Positions 9,086-19,923 of a DNA stretch of 19,923 nt are shown piece by piece. The position numbers were made by a program, and so were the translations under genes. Where the stretch lies: positions 1 to 19,923 of the forward strand of contig JAGSPR010000074.1 in assembly GCA_018262455.1 (NCBI GenBank), read 5' to 3'. Each line of letters starts with the position of its first letter. Within the stretch, counting starts at the first letter, position 1. Source of the DNA: Deltaproteobacteria bacterium (GTDB lineage Bacteria > Myxococcota > Polyangia > Haliangiales > Haliangiaceae). Below the pieces are notes generated by a model, which was not told where the DNA came from, ran no database searches, and saw only the letters and a program-made list of their open reading frames with translations.

Positions 9086-11206
9086 CTACGGAACGATCTT
9101 GCCCGCGCTGACCGTGCCGGCGAGCGCGCTCGAGCCCTTGATGAACCCGCCGCCGCCGCCGCCGGCCCCGCCACCCTTGCCACCGCCGCCATCGGTCCCC
9201 GCGGTCGCGGCCGTCGCACCGGCGGATCCGTTGCCACCCGCCCCCCCGGCCCCACCGGCGTTGCCACCGAGCGCGGGCGAGGTCGGCGCTCCGGCCGAGG
9301 GGTCCGCGCCGGGTCCGCCGTTGCTGTTGCTGTCGGCACCCTGACCACCACCGCCGCCGTTCGCCAGCAGCGTGCCGTTGGCGCTGAGCGTGGCGGCATC
9401 GAGCAGGATCATGCCGCCCGCGCCCGCTCCGCCACCGCCGCCGGCGTCGGCCGCACCGCCATCGCCGCCGCCCCCCGACACGTTGATCGACCCGGAGATC
9501 GAGATCGTGCCGGCCACGAGGTACACGGCGCCCCCGGCCCCACCCCCGAGACCACCGGCGCCCCCGCCGCCCGCGCCGCTGCCGTTGCCGCCATCCTGGC
9601 CGCGACAGCCGCCGCGCAGGATCGTCGGATCGCTGGCGTCCGCGGTGGGGGCATTCCCGCCCTTCACGTTGCCGCCGTCGCCGCCCGCCCCGTCGCCGCC
9701 CTTGCTCATGAAGCTCGCGCCGGCGCCCGCGCCGCCACCGTTCGAGTTGTTCTGAGGCCCCGCGCCGGCGAACGCCTTGCAGGCCGCGGACGGCCCGCCC
9801 GGCCCGTCCGCGGTGCCCTGGGCCGCGGCATCGAGCCCTGCGGAGATCGTGATCGCGCCGGTCGCGAACACCACGAGCGGACGCGAGCCAGCGACCCTGA
9901 GCCCGCCGCCATTGACGTTGACGTTGGCCGCGATCACGAAGCAGGACGCTGGCTGATTGCCCGCGGTCCAGCCCGCCGGCTGGGTGGTCGCGCACCTCGG
10001 GTCGGTGTCGGTGTTGAGCGAGCCGCCGAGCACGGTCGTCCCGGTCGGCGCGGTGGTCGGGCACACGCGGAAGGCCCCGCGCCCCAGGCAGTCGTCGTCG
10101 ACGATCGTCAGGAGGTGGGTCGGGATCGTTCCGAGCGTCGCGTTCGTGGGAGTCCCGAGCGCGACGTTGAGCAGCTCGTCGACCTCGCCGATCGCGTCGT
10201 TGGCGATCGTGATCGTGATCGTCTGAGTCAGCGTGCCGGGCGCGAACGACAGCGGGCTCGCGGTGGAGAACGTGAAGTCGCCCGGCGTCGACGCGGTGGT
10301 CCCCGTCGCGGCGGCGAACGGCGCCGTCACGGTCAGGCCACTCGCGGTCGACAGCGCGGCGGTGAGCGTGACGGTGGCCGTGCCCTCGGTCACCGACGAC
10401 GAGGCCGCGGTGAACGACACGGTCGGGGGCGAGTCCTCGTCGACGATCGTGTGGGTCAGCGTGGACCTGGTTCCCACGAGGATCTCGGGTGAGGGGTTGT
10501 CGAGCTGGAGCACGACGGTCTCCGGGTCCTCGTCGAGCGTGTCGTTGACCTCGCCGATCGCGACCATCTGCGACGTCTCGCCGGCGGCGAACGTGACGGT
10601 CTGCTGGTTTGCGACCGCGAAGTCGACCCCTGGCGTCGCCGTGCCCGAGACGCCGAGCTGGACCGTGGTGACCGCAGAGGCGGGCTTGTCGAGCATGACG
10701 AGCGCCATCGTCTGCGTCGGCTCGCTGGTGCTCGAGGTCACCACCGCGAACTCGACGCGCGGCAGCAGCGTGTTGCTGATCGTGATCGTGTGGGTGGTGG
10801 TCGCGGCGAGCGTGGCACCCGACGGGGCCGACAGCGTCACCACGATCGTCTCGTCCGACTCGGCCTCGTCGCCGTCGCCGAGGATCGAGATCGGGATCTC
10901 CGCCTGGGTCTGTCCGGCCGCCACGGTCAGCGACGAGCTCGAGATCACGAAGTCCACCCCGGGAGTGGCGGTCCCGTCGGTGCGGGCATACGACACGGTG
11001 ACCGGGGCGTCGGTCGGCGCGGACAACACGACGGGGATCATCAGGGTGCCCGAGGCCTCGTCGGCACTCGACGAGCTGGTCTCGAACCCGATCGTCGTCG
11101 ACGTGTCGTCACCGCCATCGGAGGGCGCTGCGGGGGGGGTGAAGCTGCACGCACCGATCCCAAGCATCAGCGCCGCCAAGCGGCTCGAACCGGACATGAA
11201 CGCCAT
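9086..11206 (-). CDS. Calx-beta / glycine-rich surface lipoprotein
   Basis: The start is placed at the ATG at 11206, giving 706 residues; ATG 11197 is equally good, and an open frame reaches a TTG at 11236. The signal peptide ends in I-G-A-C, lipidated at Cys20. Three Calx-beta-like domains follow at about 37-146, 150-257 and 260-372. Each ends in a Thr/Ile-rich strand, the second and third with D-E-D or D-D-D, and the first two share G-T-A-T-P-G-V-D-F. These domains usually bind Ca2+. Residues about 372-465 are a Cys-containing spacer. From about 465 almost to the end runs a Gly/Ala/Asn/Ser-rich region built of GGxGG units, broken by short strands such as G-T-I-S-I-S-G-S-I. This recalls PE-PGRS or surface-layer adhesins. 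The likely site is the cell surface; the ligand is unknown. It is encoded just downstream of copA on the same strand. Confidence 0.75.
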   Translation of the reverse strand: MAFMSGSSRLAALMLGIGACSFTPPAAPSDGGDDTSTTIGFETSSSSADEASGTLMIPVVLSAPTDAPVTVSYARTDGTATPGVDFVISSSSLTVAAGQTQAEIPISILGDGDEAESDETIVVTLSAPSGATLAATTTHTITISNTLLPRVEFAVVTSSTSEPTQTMALVMLDKPASAVTTVQLGVSGTATPGVDFAVANQQTVTFAAGETSQMVAIGEVNDTLDEDPETVVLQLDNPSPEILVGTRSTLTHTIVDEDSPPTVSFTAASSSVTEGTATVTLTAALSTASGLTVTAPFAAATGTTASTPGDFTFSTASPLSFAPGTLTQTITITIANDAIGEVDELLNVALGTPTNATLGTIPTHLLTIVDDDCLGRGAFRVCPTTAPTGTTVLGGSLNTDTDPRCATTQPAGWTAGNQPASCFVIAANVNVNGGGLRVAGSRPLVVFATGAITISAGLDAAAQGTADGPGGPSAACKAFAGAGPQNNSNGGGAGAGASFMSKGGDGAGGDGGNVKGGNAPTADASDPTILRGGCRGQDGGNGSGAGGGGAGGLGGGAGGAVYLVAGTISISGSINVSGGGGDGGAADAGGGGGAGAGGMILLDAATLSANGTLLANGGGGGQGADSNSNGGPGADPSAGAPTSPALGGNAGGAGGAGGNGSAGATAATAGTDGGGGKGGGAGGGGGGFIKGSSALAGTVSAGKIVP
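9105..9805 (-). repeat. glycine-codon-rich low-complexity tract
   Basis: This tract encodes the Gly-rich end of the Calx-beta lipoprotein. On the plus strand it appears as many imperfect short runs of GCC/CCG/CCC. It is irregular, with no fixed unit length, so it is a protein-level low-complexity repeat rather than a DNA tandem array. It could be prone to slippage or recombination and to assembly errors. Confidence 0.6.
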
Positions 11207-11214
11207 CTCGCCAC

Positions 11215-11250
11215 ATGATCGCCGGTTCCTCGACAATGCTCAAGTTGTCG
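11215..11250 (-). promoter_or_regulatory. possible promoter with overlapping inverted repeat before the Calx-beta gene
   Basis: On the minus strand TTGAGC (11243-11238) and GATCAT (11220-11215) are separated by 17 bases, each matching the sigma-70 hexamers at four of six positions. The -10 lies 8 bases before the ATG at 11206. An inverted repeat, CGACAA and TTGTCG with an 8-base loop (11231-11250), spans the -35. It has no T-run, so it is more likely an operator than a terminator for copA. Both matches are weak. Confidence 0.3.
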
Positions 11251-11286: not shown

Positions 11287-13524
11287 TCAGGGAGCCCACT
11301 TGCGGAGCCGGAGCGACGACAGCAGGACGGAGACGCTCGATAACGACATTGCCGCACTCGCGAGTACAGGCGACAGCAGGCCCGCCGCGGCGATCGGGAT
11401 GCAGACCACGTTGTAGATCGAAGCGGCCGCGAGGTTCCGGCGGATCGTTCGCAGCGTCGCCCGCGCGAGCGCGAGTGCCGTTGGCAGCGCGCCGATCCCA
11501 CCGCGCAGCAGCGTCACCTCGGCGGCGGACGCCGCGATGTCGGTGCCGGACCCGAGCGCGATCCCGAGGTCCGCGGCCGCGAGCGCGGGGGCGTCATTGA
11601 TGCCATCTCCCACCATCGCGACCGAGCGGTGGGGGCCGGCGGAGCGCTCGCTCGCAACGATCGCGGCCTTCGCCGTCGGCCGCGCACCCGCGTGGACCTG
11701 CGTGATCCCGACCTCGCTCGCGATCCAGTGCGCTGCCGCCTCGCGGTCTCCGGTGATGAGGATCGGCTCGATCCCGAGCGCCCGCAGCGCGGTGATCGTC
11801 GCGCGCGCCTCGGCGGCGGGCGGATCAGCCACCGCCACGATCCCGACGTAGCGCCCGTCGATCGCGCCGTGCGACACCGTGGCTCCCGGTGGCGCCGCGA
11901 GCTCCGCAGGAAGCGCGATGCCCGCGAGCGCGAGGAAGTCTGCCGTGCCAACCAGCACTCGCTTGCCCGTGACGGTGGCGGAGATCCCGGCACCCGGCTC
12001 GACCGTGGCGTCCGTGGGACGCTCGAGCGCGAGCCCACGGGCCCGCGCGCCATCGACGATCGCACGCGCGATCGGGTGCTCGCTCGCGAGCTCGGCCGAG
12101 GCGATCACCGCCAGCTCCGGCAGGGTCACGGCAGGCGTGGCCGAGGGTGACGCGGCCATCTCGAGCAGCGTGGGCTTGCCCGTGGTGAGCGTACCGGTCT
12201 TGTCGAGACACACGACGTTGATCGTGCTCGCGCGCTCGAGAGCGGCACCGCTGCGGAACAGGATGCCGAGCTCGGCACCTCGCGCGGTCCCGACCGCGAC
12301 GGCAGCCGGGGTTGCGAGTCCGAGCGCGCACGGGCACGCGATCACGAGCACGGCGACCATCCGCTCGATCGCGACCGCGGAGCCCACGCCCGCGACCAGC
12401 CACGCGCCGAGTGTCACCGCGGCGATCACCAGCACGATCGGGACGAACACCGCCGACACCCGATCCGCGAGCCGCGCGATCGGCGCCTTGGTGCCCTGCG
12501 CATCCTCGACGGCGCGCGCGATCCTGGCGAGCGAGGTGTCGGCGCCGGCACGCGCCACGCGGATCGACAGCGCGCCATGGTGATTGAGCGTGCCCGCGTA
12601 GACCGGCGCGCCCTCGGCCTTGTCGACGGGCATCGACTCGCCGGTGAGCAGCGCCTCGTCGACGGCCGAGCGCCCCTCGATCACGGTGCCGTCCGCGGCG
12701 ATCCGCTCGCCGGGCCGCACGAGGATGATGTCGCCGGCGGCGAGCGCGGCCGCCTCGACGTCGTGGTCCTGGCCGTCCACCACGCGGCGTGCGGTCGACG
12801 GGGCGAGCGACAGCAGGCCCCGCACGGCGTCCGCGAGACGCGAGCGCGCCCGCGCCTCGAGCAGCTTGCCGACCATGACGAACGCGACGATCGCCGCAGC
12901 CGCCTCGAAGTAGAGCTCGGGCGCATGGATGCGCGGGCCTGCGAGCCAGCGCGCCGCACTCACCGCGGACGACAGCCACGCAGCTCCGGAGCCGAGCGCG
13001 ATCAGGGTGTTCATGTCGGGGCTGCGATGCGCGACTGCGCGGACACCGGCGCGGAAGTAGCGCGCTCCCGGCCCGAGCACGACGACCGAGCCGAGCGCGA
13101 GCTGTGCGATCACGCTGGCGGTGCTGTCAAACACGCCATGCGCCATCGCGATCACGAGCAGGGGCACGGTCGCGGCGATCGCGAGGACCGCATCGCGGCG
13201 CAGGCCCGCGTGCTCCAGGCCCTGAGCGCGCTCGATCGCCGCCAGGCGCGCGGCTCCGGAGGCCGGCGAGCCCGCACTGCCCGGTTCGCTGATCGCATCG
13301 GCCGGGACCTCATAGCCCGCGGCGCGAATCGCCGCGGCGGCGGCGCCGATCGTGGTGAGCGCCGGATCGATGACGATCCGCGCCCGCGACAGGGGCAGGT
13401 TCACCTCGGCACTCGTGATCCCGGGGACCGCGAGGGCGGCCCGCTCCACCCTGCGCACGCACGCTGCGCACGTCATCCCGAGGACCGGAAGGTCGAGTGT
13501 CGTGTGGGCAATCGTTTCGGGCAT
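11287..13524 (-). CDS. copA: Cu(I)-exporting P1B-type ATPase, CopA family
   Basis: This 745-residue inner-membrane pump uses ATP to move Cu(I) out of the cytoplasm. One heavy-metal-associated domain opens the protein, with G-M-T-C-A-A-C at 16-22. The actuator T-G-E-S is at 294-297. The membrane copper site has all expected parts: C-P-C at 397-399, Y-N at 704-705, and M-S-L-S-S at 726-730. The phosphorylation motif D-K-T-G-T-L-T begins at Asp441, the nucleotide-binding S-E-H-P is at 481-484, and G-D-G-I-N-D is at 639-644. This set of residues is diagnostic of Cu(I) rather than Zn/Cd or Co transport. Length is normal for a one-HMA member. AGGGA lies 7 bases before the ATG. It diverges from the copZ-like gene with only 14 bases between starts. 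The Calx-beta gene follows on the same strand. Confidence 0.93.
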   Translation of the reverse strand: MPETIAHTTLDLPVLGMTCAACVRRVERAALAVPGITSAEVNLPLSRARIVIDPALTTIGAAAAAIRAAGYEVPADAISEPGSAGSPASGAARLAAIERAQGLEHAGLRRDAVLAIAATVPLLVIAMAHGVFDSTASVIAQLALGSVVVLGPGARYFRAGVRAVAHRSPDMNTLIALGSGAAWLSSAVSAARWLAGPRIHAPELYFEAAAAIVAFVMVGKLLEARARSRLADAVRGLLSLAPSTARRVVDGQDHDVEAAALAAGDIILVRPGERIAADGTVIEGRSAVDEALLTGESMPVDKAEGAPVYAGTLNHHGALSIRVARAGADTSLARIARAVEDAQGTKAPIARLADRVSAVFVPIVLVIAAVTLGAWLVAGVGSAVAIERMVAVLVIACPCALGLATPAAVAVGTARGAELGILFRSGAALERASTINVVCLDKTGTLTTGKPTLLEMAASPSATPAVTLPELAVIASAELASEHPIARAIVDGARARGLALERPTDATVEPGAGISATVTGKRVLVGTADFLALAGIALPAELAAPPGATVSHGAIDGRYVGIVAVADPPAAEARATITALRALGIEPILITGDREAAAHWIASEVGITQVHAGARPTAKAAIVASERSAGPHRSVAMVGDGINDAPALAAADLGIALGSGTDIAASAAEVTLLRGGIGALPTALALARATLRTIRRNLAAASIYNVVCIPIAAAGLLSPVLASAAMSLSSVSVLLSSLRLRKWAP

Positions 13525-13538
13525 GCTAGCGTCCCTGA
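13525..13538 (-). promoter_or_regulatory. 14-base divergent gap with copA ribosome site
   Basis: The copA ATG (13524, minus) and the copZ-like GTG (13539, plus) are 14 bases apart. The gap holds AGGGA on the minus strand (13536-13532), a good copA Shine-Dalgarno with 7-base spacing. No such site faces the copZ-like gene. Neither promoter fits in the gap, so both must overlap coding sequence. Confidence 0.65.
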
Positions 13539-13766
13539 GTGATTACCACCTTGCGGATCACCGGCATGACGTGCGGAGGCTGCGTGAAGCATGTCGATGC
13601 GGCGCTCCGTGCGCTGCCGGGGGTCTCGGCGGTCGAGGTGAAGCTCGCGGAGCACCAGGCCAAGGTCGTCCATGATCCCGAGCGATCTCCGCTGACTGGC
13701 CTCGTGGCGGCGGTCGAGGCGGCCGGCTACGAGGCCGCCCTGGCAGCGTCCGACGCGTCGGCTTAA
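13539..13766 (+). CDS. copZ: CopZ-like copper chaperone (heavy-metal-associated domain)
   Basis: This 75-residue single-domain cytosolic protein has the ferredoxin-like heavy-metal-associated fold. The Cu(I) site is G-M-T-C-G-G-C at residues 9-15, followed by V-K-H-V-D and the typical L-P-G-V turn at about 26-29. The second half, with V-E-A-A-G-Y-E-A, closes the domain. Known members carry Cu(I) and deliver it to CopA-type pumps or to copper sensors. The GTG start is set by the domain boundary, since the next Met is already inside the metal motif. No ribosome site precedes it, so it may be read from a leaderless transcript. It diverges from copA and heads a five-gene block in the same direction. 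It could also be a general metallochaperone, but the context favours copper. Confidence 0.88.
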   Translation: MITTLRITGMTCGGCVKHVDAALRALPGVSAVEVKLAEHQAKVVHDPERSPLTGLVAAVEAAGYEAALAASDASA

Positions 13767-13790
13767 TCCCGAGCACACTTTCTGGCTTGC

Positions 13791-14249
13791 ATGACCGATC
13801 TGTTGCATACCCGCGGGGTGAGTCGGTTCGCCCTGATGTGGAGTCTCGCGGTCCTGCCGCTCGCCTGCGGCCCTGGCAAACCGGCCGAGCAGCCCCGCCC
13901 GGCGGCGATCGCGACCCACGATGATCCGACCTGCCCGGTGGTCGTGGCAGGAACCTCGGTGAGCGTCGAGGACACCGATCAGGGCGCGGCCTTCGTGTTC
14001 ATCACGACCGGCGACGTCGCCGCGGTGCGATCGCGCGCTTCGGCGCTCGCCGCGATGCACGAGGCGCATCCGCAGATGGGCAGCCAGATGGGTTCGATGA
14101 TCTCGGTGGCCTCGACGGCGACCGCGAGCGAGATCCCCGGAGGCGCGCGCGTGACGTTCACGACCACGAGCGCGAGCGATGCGGCGAAGCTGCAGGCCGA
14201 GCTCCGCATGCACGCGCACCACCTCGCCAGCGGCAGCTGCGTGATGTGA
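13791..14249 (+). CDS. Met/His-rich lipoprotein, candidate periplasmic copper-binding protein
   Basis: This is a 152-residue protein starting at ATG 13791; an internal GTG at 13818 would give a more typical signal peptide length and is a real alternative. A lipobox L-P-L-A-C marks the lipidated Cys26. After a Pro-rich linker come T-C-P-V-V-V, then a short beta-type domain. A Met/His cluster follows (A-M-H-E-A-H-P-Q-M-G-S-Q-M-G-S-M, about residues 84-99). A second half contains a T-F-T-T-T strand, and the tail has M-H-A-H-H and a final C-V-M. Met, His and Cys spaced this way suit Cu(I)/Cu(II) binding, and the gene lies between copZ and a TolC-like gene. I cannot assign a named family. A role in periplasmic copper buffering is inferred from composition and context only. 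Its stop overlaps the next start. Confidence 0.7.
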   Translation: MTDLLHTRGVSRFALMWSLAVLPLACGPGKPAEQPRPAAIATHDDPTCPVVVAGTSVSVEDTDQGAAFVFITTGDVAAVRSRASALAAMHEAHPQMGSQMGSMISVASTATASEIPGGARVTFTTTSASDAAKLQAELRMHAHHLASGSCVM

Positions 14250-14461
14250 TGCGGAGCGGAGGTCTGCTCGGCATCGCGCTCGTCGGAGCGTGCGCGGTTC
14301 GCGGACCGACCGTCGGCTCGACGCACCCTGCGGCGGCGACCGCCCCGATCGGCCGCCTCGCCGGCGCCCCGCCGAGCCTGCGCCCCGGCGCGGTCGTCTA
14401 CCCGGATGTCCCGGCGGTCGCGCCGCCCGAGGCCCCGCACCACCACCACCCCGCACCGTGA
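14249..14461 (+). CDS. small lipoprotein with C-terminal His cluster
   Basis: This 70-residue protein starts at an ATG whose first base is the last base of the upstream stop (TGATG). The signal peptide ends in a lipobox L-V-G-A-C, with lipid Cys15. The mature part, about 55 residues, is rich in Ala, Pro and Gly with little predicted structure. It ends with A-P-H-H-H-H-P-A-P, a cluster able to bind Cu, Ni or Zn. Its stop overlaps the next gene's GTG start (GTGA), so three consecutive lipoprotein genes are chained by start-stop overlaps. That chaining, the lipobox and the flanking copper genes argue that it is real despite its size. No family is recognised. It may be a flexible metal-handing tether beside the TolC-like protein. 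Confidence 0.6.
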   Translation: MRSGGLLGIALVGACAVRGPTVGSTHPAAATAPIGRLAGAPPSLRPGAVVYPDVPAVAPPEAPHHHHPAP

Positions 14462-15798
14462 TCGTGCTCCGGATCTTGCTGGTGCTTGCGATCGCCGGCT
14501 GCGCGCCGTCGAGATCCTGGTTGCAGCGCCCGGTCGACGCCGAGCTGGCACGCCGGCTCGGCCGTGATGCCGACCTGCGGTCGACCGAAGACCCGCGCGT
14601 GGCGGCGGCGATCGCCCTGCGGCTCACCCGTCCTCTCGATGCCGAGGGCGCCGTGCGGATCGCGCTCGCCAACAGCGCGCGCTTGCGGGCCGCGCTCGAC
14701 GAGCTCGGGGTGGCCGGCGGTGGCCTCGCGCTGACGCTCGGACCAACGGAGCTCGAGCTCGCCCACCGCCACGGGGGCGGGGGCAACGAGCTCGAGGTGT
14801 CCGCGGTCCAGGACATCCTCACCGTGATCACCGCCGGGCGCCGTCGCGCCGCCGCCCGCGCGGAGCTGTCCGCCGCCCGCGCGACCGCGACCGCGACCGC
14901 GCTCCGGCTCGCGGCCCGCGTCGAGATCGCCTTTCACGATCTGCTCGCCGCACAGCAGGAGCTCGAGCTCCGCGGCACCGCGTTCGACGCGGCCGACGCC
15001 GCCGCGATCCTCCGCGAACGCATGCACGCCGCCGGCAACGCCTCGGATCTCGCTCGGGCCCGCGATCGCGACGCCCGCGAGCAAGCACGGATCGAGGTGG
15101 CGCGTGCCGAGGCCGCGATCGAGGCCCGCCGAGAGGAGCTCAACGCGCTGCTCGGGCTCACCGGCGAGCAGACGAAGTGGAGCGCGAGCGGACGGTTGCC
15201 CGACGTCCCCGCCACCGCACCGTCTCTCGATGGCCTCGAAGCGGCCGCGGTCACCGCGAACCTCGAGCTCGCCGCCGGGCGCGCGCGCGTCGATGCGGCG
15301 GCCAACCAGGCAGCCGACCAGCGCCTGCGGACGTTCCTGCCGCGGCTCGGCCTCGGCGTCTCGGCGGTCGATCACAACCACATCCTCCAGGTCGGGCCGG
15401 TGATCCAGCTCGGGATCCCGCTGCTCGACTGGAACACCGGCGGGCGCGCGCGGGCCCGGGCGGAGCTCAGCCGGGTCCAGCACGAGCTCACGGCGGTCGC
15501 GGTCGAGCTCCGGGCGGGTGCGCGGCTCGCGCGGATCGCGGCGCTCGCGGCCTATGGCGAAGCACGCCACCTCCACGATGTCGTGTTGCCGCTGCGCCAG
15601 CAGATCGTCGACGAGACGCTCAAGCACTACAACGCGATGGACGCCGATCCGTTCGCGCTGATCCTGTCGCGTCGGGATCTCGCTGATGCGGGACATCAGT
15701 ACGTGGATGCCTTGAGGCGCTACGCCAATGCGATCAGCGCCGTGTCGGCGCTCGAGCGTGGCGTGCTCGTCGATGCAGCCGCAGATAGGTCACACTGA
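14458..15798 (+). CDS. TolC/CusC-like outer-membrane efflux lipoprotein
   Basis: This 446-residue protein starts at GTG 14458, within the upstream stop. That start gives a clean signal peptide with lipobox A-I-A-G-C, lipid Cys15; a longer frame from 14290 only reads antisense-like Arg/Pro sequence. The mature chain is mostly long amphipathic Ala/Arg/Leu-rich helices with heptad character, interrupted by short strands. It is arranged as two tandem halves, as in outer-membrane efflux (OEP) proteins of the CusC/CzcC group, which form trimeric channel-tunnels and are often lipidated. Landmarks are L-D-A-E-G-A-V-R-I-A-L-A-N, a first-half E-V-S-A-V-Q-D, and a second-half G-I-P-L-L-D-W-N-T-G-G. The copper context suggests metal efflux, yet no CusA/CusB-type genes are adjacent. 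It presumably works with partners encoded elsewhere. Confidence 0.8.
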   Translation: MIVLRILLVLAIAGCAPSRSWLQRPVDAELARRLGRDADLRSTEDPRVAAAIALRLTRPLDAEGAVRIALANSARLRAALDELGVAGGGLALTLGPTELELAHRHGGGGNELEVSAVQDILTVITAGRRRAAARAELSAARATATATALRLAARVEIAFHDLLAAQQELELRGTAFDAADAAAILRERMHAAGNASDLARARDRDAREQARIEVARAEAAIEARREELNALLGLTGEQTKWSASGRLPDVPATAPSLDGLEAAAVTANLELAAGRARVDAAANQAADQRLRTFLPRLGLGVSAVDHNHILQVGPVIQLGIPLLDWNTGGRARARAELSRVQHELTAVAVELRAGARLARIAALAAYGEARHLHDVVLPLRQQIVDETLKHYNAMDADPFALILSRRDLADAGHQYVDALRRYANAISAVSALERGVLVDAAADRSH

Positions 15799-15803
15799 GC
15801 GCC

Positions 15804-17108
15804 ATGTCGATCACGCGCCGCACGCTGCTCTCGACCGGTCTCGCTGCCGGCGCCACGCTCGTGGCGAACCGCGCACCCGCGCAGCCCAGCTCGCCCGCGC
15901 AGCCGGTGCCACCGGCACCGCCGCCATCGCCCGCGGGGGCGCGCAAGCCAGAGCGCGTCGTGGTTCCGAACGGCTCGCTGTTGCCGTGGACGCGGCGCGA
16001 TGGCGTGAAGGTCTACCACCTGCGCGCCGAGCCACTGAAGCACCAGCTCGCGCCCGGTCTCGACATCGAGGCGTGGGGCTACAACGGCTCGACGCCCGGC
16101 CCCGTGATCGAGGCGGTCGAGGGCGATCGCGTCCGGATCTACGTGACCAACAAGTTGCCCGAGGTCACCTCGGTCCACTGGCACGGGATCTTCGTACCCA
16201 ACGGGATGGATGGCGTCGCCGGCCTGACCCAGGCGCCGATCGCGCCGGGCAAGACGTTTCGCTACGAATTCACGTTCGATCGCGCGGGGACGTTCATGTA
16301 CCACCCGCATGCCGACGAGATGACGCAGATCGCGCTCGGCATGATGGGCATGATCGTCGTCCATCCGCGGGGCGGCGCCGCGACACGCCGGGTCCGCGAC
16401 TACGCGCTGATGCTGCACGCGTGGAAGGTCCCGATCGGCACGAGTCGTCCCGATCCGCTGGCGATGAACGACTTCAACGTCCTCACGTTCAACAGCAAGG
16501 CGTTCCCCGGCACCGCGCCGCTCGTGGCTGAGACCGGGGACCTCGTGCGGCTGAGGCTCGGCAACCTCGGGCCCATGGATCACCATCCGATCCACCTCCA
16601 CGGCCACGCGTTCTCGGTGGTCGCCACCGACGGCGGAGCGGTGCCGGTCTCGGCCCGGTTCCCCGAGACCACCGTGCTGGTCCCGGTCGGCACGACGCGC
16701 ACGGTCGAGTTCATCGCGAGCGCGGCCGGTGACTGGCCGTTGCACTGCCACATGACCCATCACGCGATGAACCAGATGGGCCACGACGCGGCCAACCTGA
16801 TCGGCGCCGATACCAAAGGCCTCGATGCCAAGCTCGGGCGGATCGTGCCGGGCTACATGACGATGGGCCAGAGCGGCATGAGCGAGATGTCGCACATGGG
16901 CATGGAGCAGCCGCGCAACTCGATCTCGATGGTCGGGGGCAAGGGCCCGCACGGCATCATCGACATGGGCGGCATGTTCACGACGATCAAGATCCGCGAC
17001 CGGCTGATCGGAGATGCCGACCCGGGCTGGTACGAGGCCCCGAAGCACACCGTCGCGGTCGAGGCCACCGACGCCGAGCTCCGGCGCGACGGCATCACCC
17101 GGTCGTGA
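15804..17108 (+). CDS. Tat-exported two-domain multicopper oxidase
   Basis: This is a 434-residue periplasmic oxidase. A twin-arginine signal T-R-R-T-L-L-S-T (4-11) leads to a cleavage region near A-P-A-Q at 24-27, so it is exported folded. All four copper motifs are present: H-W-H-G at 125-128, Y-H-P-H at 166-169, H-P-I-H-L-H-G-H at 261-268, and H-C-H-M-T-H-H-A-M-N-Q-M at 314-325. The last includes the type 1 axial Met. Only about 90 residues separate the second and third motifs, too few for the middle domain of CueO- or CopA-like three-domain enzymes. About 110 residues follow the last motif and are Met-rich (351-391). Known relatives oxidise Cu(I) to the less toxic Cu(II) or act on phenols. 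It starts 5 bases after the TolC-like stop and closes the copper block. Confidence 0.88.
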   Translation: MSITRRTLLSTGLAAGATLVANRAPAQPSSPAQPVPPAPPPSPAGARKPERVVVPNGSLLPWTRRDGVKVYHLRAEPLKHQLAPGLDIEAWGYNGSTPGPVIEAVEGDRVRIYVTNKLPEVTSVHWHGIFVPNGMDGVAGLTQAPIAPGKTFRYEFTFDRAGTFMYHPHADEMTQIALGMMGMIVVHPRGGAATRRVRDYALMLHAWKVPIGTSRPDPLAMNDFNVLTFNSKAFPGTAPLVAETGDLVRLRLGNLGPMDHHPIHLHGHAFSVVATDGGAVPVSARFPETTVLVPVGTTRTVEFIASAAGDWPLHCHMTHHAMNQMGHDAANLIGADTKGLDAKLGRIVPGYMTMGQSGMSEMSHMGMEQPRNSISMVGGKGPHGIIDMGGMFTTIKIRDRLIGDADPGWYEAPKHTVAVEATDAELRRDGITRS

Positions 17109-17120
17109 TCTCGCCGACAC

Positions 17121-17138
17121 CCGCCGAAAGTTCGGCGG
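17121..17138. promoter_or_regulatory. 18-base perfect inverted repeat between the oxidase and NHL genes
   Basis: CCGCCGAA and TTCGGCGG are exact inverted complements separated by AG. As RNA this makes a 6-base GC stem with an AAAGTT-type loop, but no T-run follows, so it is not a standard intrinsic terminator. It sits 13 bases after the oxidase stop and just upstream of a -10-like hexamer, a position that also suits an operator. Confidence 0.55.
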
Positions 17139-17155
17139 TCGCTCCCGGTTCGGCT

Positions 17156-17161
17156 TACAAT
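17156..17161 (+). promoter_or_regulatory. possible -10 element of the NHL lipoprotein gene
   Basis: TACAAT matches the sigma-70 -10 hexamer at five of six positions and ends 7 bases before the ATG at 17169. Transcription would begin at or beside the start codon. No good -35 is present; the position where it should be is occupied by the inverted repeat, which would suit an activator-dependent promoter. Confidence 0.4.
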
Positions 17162-17168
17162 CGCGACG

Positions 17169-18278
17169 ATGTCTACTCGGGGGATTGTCTTGGTGGCGCT
17201 GCTCGCCGGGTGCGGAGGCGGAGGTCCGGTCACCCCTCCGACAGGGGACGGCGGCGTGGACGCGGACGGGGACGCGGGCTCCATCACGGATGCGCCGGTC
17301 GTGCCATGCACCCACCCGTCGCTCGACCGCGCGGTCGCGACGATCGCCGGCTGCGAACAAGCGGGCGCGACCGACGGCCCGCGTGACGACGTGCGGTTCA
17401 ACAACCCGACCAACGTCGTGGTCGTGGGCGACGCGATCATCGTCGCCGACTTCGACAACAGCCGGCTGCGCCGGATCGCCGCCGACGGCACCACGACCAC
17501 GCTCGTCATGCGCGCCGACTTCCGCCGCCCGTTCGGGCTCGCGGCCGCCACCGATGGCACGCTCTACGTCGAGACGGACGACAACGATCTGGGCGTCCAC
17601 ACGATCGACAGTGGCACGGTGTGGCGGGTCGATCCGACGACCGGCACCGCGGTGGTGGTTGGCCGTGATCTCGGACGGCCACGAGGCCTCGCGGTCCTAC
17701 CCGACGGCCGGATCGCGATGTCCGATCACATGCACCACGTGCTCCGGATCCTCGATCCGACAACCGGGCTCGCGACGCCGCTCGCCGGCCTGGCCGATGC
17801 CGCGGGCTACGTCAACGCCAGCGGCGCCGACGCGCGGTTCGCGCAACCCTACGATGTCGTGCTGCTCCCCGACGGAGACCTCGCGGTCGCCGATCAGGAC
17901 AACCACCGCATCCGCCGCGTCACGCTCGCGGGTGTCGTCAGCGATCTTGCCGGCTCGGGGACCCTCGGGAACATCGACGGCCCGGTGGACGTGGCGCAGT
18001 TTCATGCGCCACAGGGCCTCGCGGTCGCGCCCGACGGGCTCTACGTGACCGACATCAAGCGTTACTTCGTGCGCCGGATCGCGAACGGCACGGTGTCGAC
18101 CGTCGCCGGAGACGGCACCGCGGGCTGGCTCGACAGCAACGAGCCGCGCAGCGCGCGGTTCTATGGCCTCGAGGGCATGGCCGCGAGCGCGACCCAGCTC
18201 GTGGTCGCCGACGGCAACGGCGGCGATGGCAGCACGTTCCACCGCATCCGGACGATCCGGCTCGACGCGCTGCCGTAG
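17169..18278 (+). CDS. NHL-repeat beta-propeller lipoprotein
   Basis: This is a 369-residue exported lipoprotein. Its signal peptide ends in L-L-A-G-C (lipid Cys15), followed by a Gly run and an Asp/Gly-rich linker to about residue 42. The rest consists of NHL-type repeats, each with a P-x-x-V/L strand, a D-G or G-D turn and a V-A-D-x-x-N-x-R-L/I-R-R-I/V ending. The clearest copies are at about 79-105 (A-D-F-D-N-S-R-L-R-R-I), 176-200, 226-258 (A-D-Q-D-N-H-R-I-R-R-V), 280-305 and 330-367. About five or six blades are expected, forming a beta-propeller on the periplasmic or outer face. Such propellers mostly bind proteins or ligands; the target here is unknown. It follows the copper oxidase by 60 bases but may have its own promoter. 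The NhaD gene starts 8 bases after its stop. Confidence 0.8.
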   Translation: MSTRGIVLVALLAGCGGGGPVTPPTGDGGVDADGDAGSITDAPVVPCTHPSLDRAVATIAGCEQAGATDGPRDDVRFNNPTNVVVVGDAIIVADFDNSRLRRIAADGTTTTLVMRADFRRPFGLAAATDGTLYVETDDNDLGVHTIDSGTVWRVDPTTGTAVVVGRDLGRPRGLAVLPDGRIAMSDHMHHVLRILDPTTGLATPLAGLADAAGYVNASGADARFAQPYDVVLLPDGDLAVADQDNHRIRRVTLAGVVSDLAGSGTLGNIDGPVDVAQFHAPQGLAVAPDGLYVTDIKRYFVRRIANGTVSTVAGDGTAGWLDSNEPRSARFYGLEGMAASATQLVVADGNGGDGSTFHRIRTIRLDALP

Positions 18279-19586: not shown

Positions 19587-19923
19587 TCACGCGAGCTGCG
19601 CGTAGAGCGGAAGGCTCCACACGACGCCAAGCACGACCGAGAGCAGTCCGGCACCGGCGAGCAACGTGCGTTGCGCGTGCCCCGGCACCGCCGCGAGCGA
19701 GGCGCCCGCGACCGCCGACGCGGCGGCCATCCCGCCGACCGAGCCGAGGCCGAACAAGCTGATGTAGGCGAGCCGCGATGACGTCGAGGGCAGCTGCGAG
19801 AACACGAGCGCGGTGAGCGCGCCGCTGCCGGCGAGGCCATGAACGAGCCCGACCGCGAGCGGCCGCCACGCGAGCGTCGCGCGGCCGACGTGGACGTGCG
19901 CGGATGGACCGTGGTGGTGGTGG
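19587..19923 (-). CDS. UreH/HupE-like membrane protein, C-terminal part (5' end outside window)
   Basis: The minus-strand frame is open from the window edge to a TGA at 19587, showing the last 111 residues. An internal ATG at 19805 is present, but the similarity starts well before it. The visible part begins with a His cluster (H-H-H-H-G-P then H-V-H-V) and continues W-R-P-L-A-V-G-L-V-H-G-L-A-G-S-G-A-L. It then has L-F-G-L-G-S-V-G-G-M-A and a last hydrophobic span ending Y-A-Q-L-A. A His-rich loop followed by R-P-x-x-V-G-x-x-H-G-L-A-G-S is characteristic of the urease accessory/nickel permease (UreH, HupE, NicO-like) group. At least three membrane spans are visible. Metal transport, probably nickel or cobalt, is inferred by family only. 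Confidence 0.72.
   Translation of the reverse strand, partial: HHHHGPSAHVHVGRATLAWRPLAVGLVHGLAGSGALTALVFSQLPSTSSRLAYISLFGLGSVGGMAAASAVAGASLAAVPGHAQRTLLAGAGLLSVVLGVVWSLPLYAQLA

What the first reader, a model, noticed from the sequence alone, without database searches (positions are those of the whole stretch)
13791..14461. Two unfamiliar, overlap-coupled small lipoproteins inside a copper-efflux block
Between copZ and a TolC-like gene lie a 152-residue lipoprotein with a Met/His cluster and M-H-A-H-H tail, and a 70-residue lipoprotein ending in HHHH. Their starts and stops overlap each other (TGATG) and the TolC-like gene (GTGA). The overlaps and lipoboxes are seen directly. That they are periplasmic copper carriers handing metal to the outer-membrane channel is inferred. 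This position is where a CusB/CusF-like partner would normally stand.
Basis: partly seen in the sequence, partly recalled or inferred. Interest (0 to 1): 0.72.

Follow-up and report, generated by a model that had tools for sequence, protein, structure and literature searches.

The report
Two copper-module lipoproteins of myxobacteria
Two small membrane-anchored proteins, both unnamed in the protein-family libraries searched, sit in a myxobacterial copper-detoxification gene block; one looks like a duplicated small fold with a metal-binding loop, the other like a short anchored metal-catching tail that goes with a particular outer-membrane channel gene.

Summary
Both frames are conserved genes in a myxobacterial copper module: copA (divergent), copZ, ORF1, ORF2, TolC-like channel (OEP), multicopper oxidase (MCO). 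Neither matches Pfam or NCBIfam above cut-off.

ORF1 belongs to an unannotated lipoprotein family. Its predicted core is a ββα unit duplicated in tandem (half against half: hhalign E 3.8e-10 on the wide alignment), with a Met/His-rich loop between. C48, H90, M103, H141, H144 and C150 are invariant in 32 aligned sequences. Distant members outside the cassette lie within 10 kb of a P1B metal ATPase in 8 of 25 cases (0.34 expected).

ORF2 is tied to the channel: all 17 strong matches in the order lie directly before an OEP. In 40 OEP loci elsewhere in the phylum a rule finds a His- or HMBD-tailed lipoprotein just upstream in 29, against 78 of 4000 random positions; that likeness is of position and composition, not proven homology. 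Some carry a Pfam heavy-metal-binding domain (HMBD).

Copper binding is well supported by inference. Hand-over to the channel, and an exit without pump or adaptor, are plausible but untested. ORF1 is not CusF and ORF2 not CusB by the tests run.

The parts
11287..13524 (-). copA: copper P1B-type ATPase, divergent from the block
   Evidence: TIGR01511 525.5 bits over cut-off 397
13539..13766 (+). copZ: HMA-domain copper chaperone, 75 aa
   Evidence: PF00403 E 1e-17
13807..13812 (+). ATACCC element just before the likely ORF1 start; also before the start in L001 and L002
   Evidence: function inferred
13791..14249 (+). ORF1: lipoprotein, 152 aa from ATG; likely true start GTG 13818 (143 aa)
13866..13868 (+). 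ORF1 lipid-attachment Cys (C26 of the 152-aa numbering)
   Evidence: Cys in 97% of 32 sequences
13932..14063 (+). ORF1 first ββα half (residues 48-91; C48 and H90 invariant in A2)
14064..14099 (+). ORF1 Met/His linker (residues 92-103; M103 invariant in A2)
   Evidence: M+H fraction 0.28 in the linker against 0.04 and 0.10 in the halves
14100..14228 (+). ORF1 second ββα half (residues 104-146; helix with E137, M140, H141, H144)
14238..14246 (+). ORF1 C-terminal C150-V-M152 (C150 invariant)
14247..14251 (+). TGATG overlap of ORF1 stop and ORF2 start
   Evidence: same overlap in L001, L002, L004
14249..14461 (+). ORF2: lipoprotein, 70 aa
14291..14293 (+). ORF2 lipid-attachment Cys (C15)
   Evidence: invariant in 8
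14324..14383 (+). ORF2 conserved segment HPAAATAPIGRLAGAPPSLR (residues 26-45), candidate docking motif
   Evidence: docking is inferred
14438..14449 (+). ORF2 HHHH (residues 64-67), likely metal-binding tail
   Evidence: His ends in relatives
14458..14461 (+). GTGA overlap of ORF2 stop and OEP start
14458..15798 (+). TolC-like outer-membrane efflux protein (OEP), itself with a lipobox (AGC)
   Evidence: PF02321 E 6e-23, two stretches
15804..17108 (+). multicopper oxidase, 434 aa, RR-type signal, Met/His-rich C-terminal part
   Evidence: PF07732 E 1e-38; PF07731 E 2e-31; TAT_signal below cut-off

Best explanation
ORF1 and ORF2 are two envelope lipoproteins of one copper-detoxification module (CopA, CopZ, ORF1, ORF2, OEP, MCO). 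They probably sit on the periplasmic face of the outer membrane and bind copper. ORF1 is a small folded buffer or chaperone: two ββα units, ends perhaps held by a C48-C150 disulphide, with a Met/His loop plus helix-borne His/Met, suited to Cu(I) that CopA brings into the periplasm and from which the oxidase can take it. ORF2 is an anchored tether: lipid Cys, a short conserved Pro/Ala segment that may dock on the channel, and a flexible end with His residues (HMBD in some proteins at the same place elsewhere), suited to holding Cu(II), the product of the oxidase, next to the channel. Shown here: conservation, gene order, lipoboxes, duplicated fold (predicted), conserved Cys/His/Met, association with copper genes. 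Inferred: metal binding and its redox preference (Met for Cu(I), His for Cu(II): general knowledge), location, docking, and the order of hand-over. I put copper binding by both at about 0.75 and hand-over through the OEP at about 0.3.
For: Gene order ORF1-ORF2-OEP-MCO recurs: of 30 OEP loci in the order, MCO lies within 3 kb downstream in 27, ORF1 upstream in 14, ORF2 in 18 (one weak), both in 12. All 17 strong ORF2 matches in the order (E at or below 1.4e-8) lie directly before an OEP (searches compared by eye). Of 40 OEP loci taken elsewhere in the phylum, 29 have a lipoprotein with a His tail (24) or HMBD (5) just upstream by a fixed rule; random positions gave 78 of 4000. Pfam finds HMBD in five such proteins. 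MCO follows the OEP in 17 of 17 rows that could be compared. ORF1: C48, H90, M103, H141, H144, C150 in all 32 rows of A2, and at least 90% in all 37; same fold predicted for a distant member; half-half homology; non-cassette relatives near P1B ATPases 8 of 25 against 0.34 expected. In Bradyrhizobium, insertions in a tolC-family gene and in an MCO gene each lowered copper tolerance (PMC5057107, passages); the tolC mutant was sensitive to other metals too, and linkage of the two genes was not seen in the passages.
Against: No metal was measured. 17 of the 25 non-cassette ORF1 relatives are not within 10 kb of a P1B ATPase, though many contigs are short, and a divergent NCPS/GHCP type shows none in the 13 that were in searched genomes, so the fold alone does not mean copper. 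P0035 and P0036 lack the Met/His loop. ORF1 was not found at 16 of 30 OEP loci and ORF2 not at 12, some of them contig ends; L005 has ORF1 joined straight to OEP, and L038's ORF2 has no His tail. The ORF2 model A7 found no convincing ORF2 outside the order except beside the G170 OEP (E 3.5e-4): of 25 rows, 18 are weak and not known to lie by an OEP. P1B hits include transporters of metals other than copper. TolC-type channels normally need an adaptor (recalled), and none was found here.
Confidence: 0.68

Rival explanations
1. Passive sponges: the two lipoproteins only bind and store excess copper at the outer membrane, with no hand-over to oxidase or channel.
For: Loop length and tail type vary freely (linker 13-82 residues in A2; His, Met/His or HMBD tails), as expected of a sponge rather than a precise docking partner. 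Distant ORF1 relatives occur without OEP or MCO nearby.
Against: ORF2 is tied to the OEP: 17 of 17 strong matches in the order lie directly before it. A short segment near its anchor is conserved apart from the tail. ORF1 has invariant single His/Met/Cys sites in A2.
Confidence: 0.35
2. Assembly factors: ORF2, and perhaps ORF1, help to fold, place or metallate the OEP or the MCO, and free-copper binding is secondary.
For: Strict adjacency of ORF2 and OEP, with overlapping stop and start in the window and several relatives.
Against: A metal-binding end is found at this place while the sequence around it changes, HMBD included; ORF2 was not found at 12 of 30 OEP loci (some are contig ends, and L161 has an HMBD lipoprotein instead).
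Confidence: 0.15
3. Redox or copper-sensing lipoproteins: ORF1's two conserved Cys act as a thiol pair that signals or repairs rather than carries copper.
For: C48 and C150 are invariant in all 37 aligned relatives, and the matching Cys are invariant in 29 diverse members.
Against: No CxxC; the Met/His loop and helix His residues have no role in this reading; the neighbours are copper transport and oxidation genes.
Confidence: 0.08

Closest known systems
CusF (PF11604) and CusB of the Cus copper/silver efflux system
   Same: Small periplasmic Cu-binding partners encoded beside an outer-membrane channel; one HMBD-bearing protein of the ORF2 slot gives a weak match to the CusB model (NCBIfam E 0.0026, 16.3 bits against 390).
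   Different: ORF1 fails the CusF model and is predicted ββαββα instead of CusF's OB barrel (OB fold recalled). ORF2 has no adaptor body. No RND pump or adaptor among the 17 window proteins scanned.
CopL of Staphylococcus aureus (copXL and copB/mco loci)
   Same: A lipoprotein beside a P1B ATPase and, in some strains, an MCO; suggested to bind copper outside the cell (PMC10233261, passages).
   Different: Gram-positive, no outer membrane, no TolC; ORF1 and ORF2 match no Pfam family. CopL itself was not compared by sequence.
PcoE / SilE type Met/His-rich periplasmic metal sponges (recalled)
   Same: His/Met-rich, small, in copper or silver blocks.
   Different: Soluble and disordered as recalled; ORF1 has a confident folded core (pLDDT 90 or more for 78 of 152 residues) and both proteins are predicted lipoproteins.
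curA operon of Myxococcus xanthus (CuoA, CorSR, CopA, DUF305 lipoprotein)
   Same: A myxobacterial copper operon with MCO, CopA and lipoproteins (PMC3707914, passages, section 5 with Table 1).
   Different: Table 1 lists no TolC-type channel and no protein described like ORF1 or ORF2; MXAN_3413 is listed only as hypothetical and was not compared.
TolC family protein + copper oxidase pairs on plasmids of Proteobacteria and Simkania
   Same: Same OEP-MCO gene pair in the annotated regions looked at; a small protein just upstream with a Met/His-rich end in 3 of 7 (Janthinobacterium, Cupriavidus, Simkania; the last is a lipoprotein with NHPAS...HVHPHH).
   Different: ORF1 was not sought there; the small upstream lipoproteins of Sulfitobacter and Microvirga have no His tail.

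Membership tests
CusF (PF11604) | Match to the family model above its cut-off | tested here: not met
   ORF1: 15.3 bits against a cut-off of 27, E 0.018
CusF (PF11604) | OB-type β-barrel fold (recalled) | tested here: not met
   ORF1 predicted ββαββα with confident core; a prediction, not a solved structure
CusB / RND adaptor (MFP) | Match to an adaptor family | tested here: not met
   ORF1 and ORF2 match no adaptor family; ORF2 is 70 aa
Cus/Czc-type tripartite RND system | RND pump (PF00873) encoded next to the channel | tested here: not met
   None among 17 window proteins. In 11 cassette-bearing relatives each genome has 7-30 matches, but of 13 cassette contigs, some short, only G006:C301 holds any, about 10.7 kb away (coordinates compared)
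TolC / outer-membrane efflux protein (PF02321), for the neighbour gene | OEP domain above cut-off | tested here: met
   82 bits against 22, two stretches
HMBD (PF19335) | HMBD match in ORF2 | tested here: not met
   ORF2 of the window has none; five proteins from the same place elsewhere do
Copper-binding protein, general | Measured Cu(I)/Cu(II) binding | not testable with these tools
   Conserved His/Met/Cys and copper neighbourhood only
Known fold in PDB | Clear structural match to a solved fold | tested here: inconclusive
Bacterial lipoproteins | Lipobox with Cys after a signal peptide | tested here: met
   Lipobox read from sequence. One search printed one for all 29 ORF1-type frames, but its choice for L044 looks wrong, so 28 of 29 are sound

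The most novel reading that the evidence does not exclude
A TolC-like channel that exports copper without an RND pump or membrane-fusion adaptor of its own. Instead, a lipid-anchored tether (ORF2) with an interchangeable metal-catching end (poly-His or HMBD) loads Cu(II), made by the neighbouring oxidase, straight into the channel mouth, while ORF1, a new duplicated ββα protein, feeds Cu(I) to the oxidase. The tether-OEP-MCO trio would be a new kind of periplasm-to-outside copper exit, spread through Myxococcota and perhaps beyond (Simkania plasmid).
Probability: 0.22. Interest if true: 0.78.

Novelty: new variant of a known kind. Interest (0 to 1): 0.55.

Why it matters
How periplasmic copper leaves cells that keep an oxidase and an outer-membrane channel gene, with no dedicated pump gene beside them, was not explained in the papers found. 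This block names two testable partners for the widespread OEP-MCO pair. It also defines a protein family for which no Pfam or NCBIfam model was found, with a predicted tandem ββα duplication.

Tried and rejected
CusF membership of ORF1: rejected. Viral contigs: 3 stretches matched a pattern, none encodes a relative. PDB by sequence: nothing better than E 0.37. Fold searches: nothing clear; the best VIA rows (allophanate hydrolase subunit, ArgR C-domain, polymerase pieces, AcrB pieces) were taken as common arrangements.

Sigma-70 promoters and terminators: none found in 13450-17200. A CsoR-type operator at GCATACCCGCGGGGTGAG was considered, because a published S. aureus site begins ATACC, but only the left half recurs in L001 and L002; left open.

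The half-half duplication test is weak on the narrow alignment A2 alone (Prob 11, E 0.0027) and succeeds on the wider A4 and A5.

The ORF2 model A7 in the phylum: 25 rows at E up to 0.01 in 24 of 377 genomes. Six rows with E at or below 1.4e-8 lie by an OEP, and so does G170 (3.5e-4); the other 18 are weak and were not followed. So the phylum-wide likeness of ORF2-slot proteins is one of position and composition.

Limits of counts. The genome searches score only some candidates per genome (9, 15 in 72, 8 in 82, 4 in 83), so their genome counts are lower bounds; the A4 protein search scored only 7997 candidates. A2 leaves out 5 of the 37 proteins: two near-duplicates (P0032, P0033) and three divergent ones (P0035, P0036, P0037), of which the first two lack the Met/His loop. 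One search used 30 of the 32 OEP rows (two weak G391:C930 rows dropped). The 40 OEP loci are 40 of the 67 rows (7 belong to the order set, 20 were not fetched), with close relatives and several rows from one genome among them. The rule was written. My reading by eye gives 38 of 40 (L193 and L195 are misses; L176 and L185 are poor cases). The motif was also written after looking, on 42 rows picked by me (36 of those 38, plus 6 others), so its 36 of 42 (shuffles: mean 4.5, most 11) is descriptive. One search leaves out weaker matches and a near-type ORF1 at a contig end (G398:C1211). It counts G151:C352 as non-cassette although OEP and MCO lie upstream of it. Its NCPS/GHCP list of 14 was sorted by me, with 8 read as sequence and 6 not, and one (G292) lies in a genome that one search did not search, so the count is 0 of 13. 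Its random expectation ignores contig ends.

Literature: seven searches listed no paper that I recognised as being about this cassette or either protein; only open-licence PMC papers are held. Seen: passages of PMC3707914 and its section 5; passages of PMC5057107, PMC10233261, PMC8478169 and PMC10092412. All other papers: search listings with the starts of abstracts only.

Full report
What is there. The window holds copA (minus strand) and copZ, then ORF1, ORF2, a TolC-like OEP and a multicopper oxidase on the plus strand, with stop-start overlaps TGATG and GTGA exactly as described. Downstream lie an NHL-repeat lipoprotein and an NhaD-type antiporter. Of 17 window proteins scanned with Pfam, none is an RND pump or adaptor. 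No whole genome is held for the window; its relatives are named Kofleriaceae or Myxococcales where they are named.

ORF1 is a real and conserved gene. A database search gave 37 proteins including itself, none with a Pfam domain. In all 37, C48 and C150 are invariant, and H90, M103, H141 and H144 reach at least 90%. In the 32 kept as A2, H90, M103, H141 and H144 are invariant too, with M140 at 91% and M152 at 97%. Of the five left out, two are near-duplicates; P0035 and P0036 lack the Met/His loop and helix His residues, and P0037 is divergent. The Met+His fraction in A2 is 0.28 in the middle linker against 0.04 and 0.10 in the two halves. The likely start is GTG 13818, since ATACCC precedes the start in the window, L001 and L002, though not in the other stretches printed.

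ORF1's shape. AlphaFold2 on A2 gives β55-61, β65-72, α76-91, loop, β108-115, β118-125, α128-146, with block pLDDT of 93-98 over most of the core. A distant member, P0046, gives the same order with a low-confidence Met/His loop. Half 1 and half 2 are homologous by profile comparison on the wide alignments (Prob 96.7, E 3.8e-10 on A4; Prob 96.0, E 4.7e-9 on A5), though not convincingly on the narrow one (Prob 11, E 0.0027). So the protein looks like a tandem duplication of a ββα unit. No solved structure is clearly alike, which does not prove a new fold.

ORF1's wider family. In the wide alignment A4 (29 members) the two Cys matching C48 and C150 are invariant and a His matching H90 stands at 97%. 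A4 finds members in 25 of 377 genomes drawn from the phylum at E up to 1e-5 and in 24 of 35 genomes of the order at E up to 0.001, weak matches included. Ten distant members match no Pfam or NCBIfam family above its cut-off. A further protein search listed 86 proteins, none with a Pfam domain; among the few names are Kofleriaceae, one Gemmatimonadota and one Pseudolysinimonas, all metagenome bins. Of 25 members outside the cassette, 8 lie within 10 kb of a P1B ATPase where about 0.34 would be expected; three of the eight (G019, G029, G039) have near-identical neighbourhoods. A divergent NCPS/GHCP type shows 0 of 13 in searched genomes. So copper association is seen for the CPM / Met-His branch only.

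ORF2 is tied to the channel. Seven relatives besides itself share HPA...A..GR.A.APPSLR and a His end. In the order, 20 matches reached E 0.01; the 17 with E at or below 1.4e-8 all lie directly before an OEP on the same strand, and the three weaker ones do not (searches compared by eye). In 30 OEP loci of the order, MCO is within 3 kb downstream in 27 (two of the three misses are contig ends), ORF1 upstream in 14, ORF2 in 18 (one weak), both in 12, ORF1 alone in 2, ORF2 alone in 6, neither in 10, some of these at contig ends. Tails vary: HHHH, long Pro-rich linkers ending HEGHH, a Met tail in L148, none in L038.

The slot before the OEP across the phylum. OEP is present in at least 51 of 377 genomes. 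I fetched the upstream DNA of 40 of its 67 rows, outside the order set. A rule (lipobox, then three or more His near the end, or an HMBD pattern), written after a first look, is met just upstream in 29 of 40 (24 His, 5 HMBD) against 78 of 4000 random positions. By eye I count 38 of 40, with L193 and L195 the misses. Pfam confirms HMBD in five of these proteins, counting the one read in L161 and again in L194 once. MCO follows the OEP in 17 of 17 rows for which both searches covered the genome. The window's own ORF2 model does not find these proteins by sequence, apart from the one at G170, so common descent is not shown. A Simkania plasmid has an unannotated lipoprotein with NHPAS and HVHPHH in the same place, and two Betaproteobacteria have Met/His-tailed small proteins there, 3 of 7 plasmid regions in all. 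ORF2 thus looks like one of a class that no library used here names: lipid anchor, short Pro/Ala segment, exchangeable metal-binding end.

How it most likely works. CopZ passes Cu(I) to CopA, which moves it into the periplasm (established for these families). ORF1, lipid-anchored and Met/His-rich, buffers Cu(I) and makes it available to the oxidase (inferred). The oxidase turns Cu(I) into Cu(II) (established for CueO-type oxidases; this one not tested). ORF2 holds Cu(II) on its His end beside the OEP (inferred). Exit through the OEP without a dedicated pump is the boldest step. In 11 cassette-bearing genomes RND pumps are plentiful (7-30 matches each), but of 13 cassette contigs only one carries any, about 10.7 kb away. 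A shared RND pump encoded elsewhere cannot be excluded.

Known or new. Gene company and chemistry are of a known kind. The proteins themselves match no family in Pfam or NCBIfam above cut-off, and I recognised no paper on them in seven searches. They may work like CusF-, PcoE- or CopL-type copper binders, but are not members of CusF or CusB by the tests run. I call it a new variant of a known kind.

Noticed in passing
window 13787-13818: TTGCATG...TTGCATACCCGCGGGGTGAG: ATACCC recurs just before the ORF1 start in L001 and L002; could be a -10 element or half of a CsoR-like site.
   Followed up: partly
L001 8771-9202 and 9199-9855: An ECF-sigma-like frame and a small membrane-protein-like frame (by my reading) stand between copZ and ORF1 in this relative; a copper-responsive CorE-like regulator is possible, not tested.
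   Followed up: no
L101, L102, L104-L107, L110, L111: A second branch of the ORF1 fold (NCPS...GHCP or GKCP type), no P1B ATPase within 10 kb in the 13 of 14 listed loci that could be checked; both halves begin with a CP motif. Function unknown.
   Followed up: partly
L161 and L194, L166, L177, L183, L199: Lipoproteins directly before the OEP that carry HMBD (PF19335), some with a His-rich part as well.
   Followed up: yes
L055 3190-3523: Simkania plasmid pSn: unannotated small lipoprotein ending HVHPHH directly before the annotated TolC-family gene and copper oxidase.
   Followed up: partly
window 9086-11236 (-): Calx-beta repeat protein with a very Gly-rich second half.
   Followed up: no
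window 19587-19922 (-): Frame running off the window, beginning HHHHGPSAHVHVGRA, membrane-protein-like, no Pfam match; possibly a metal transporter.
   Followed up: partly
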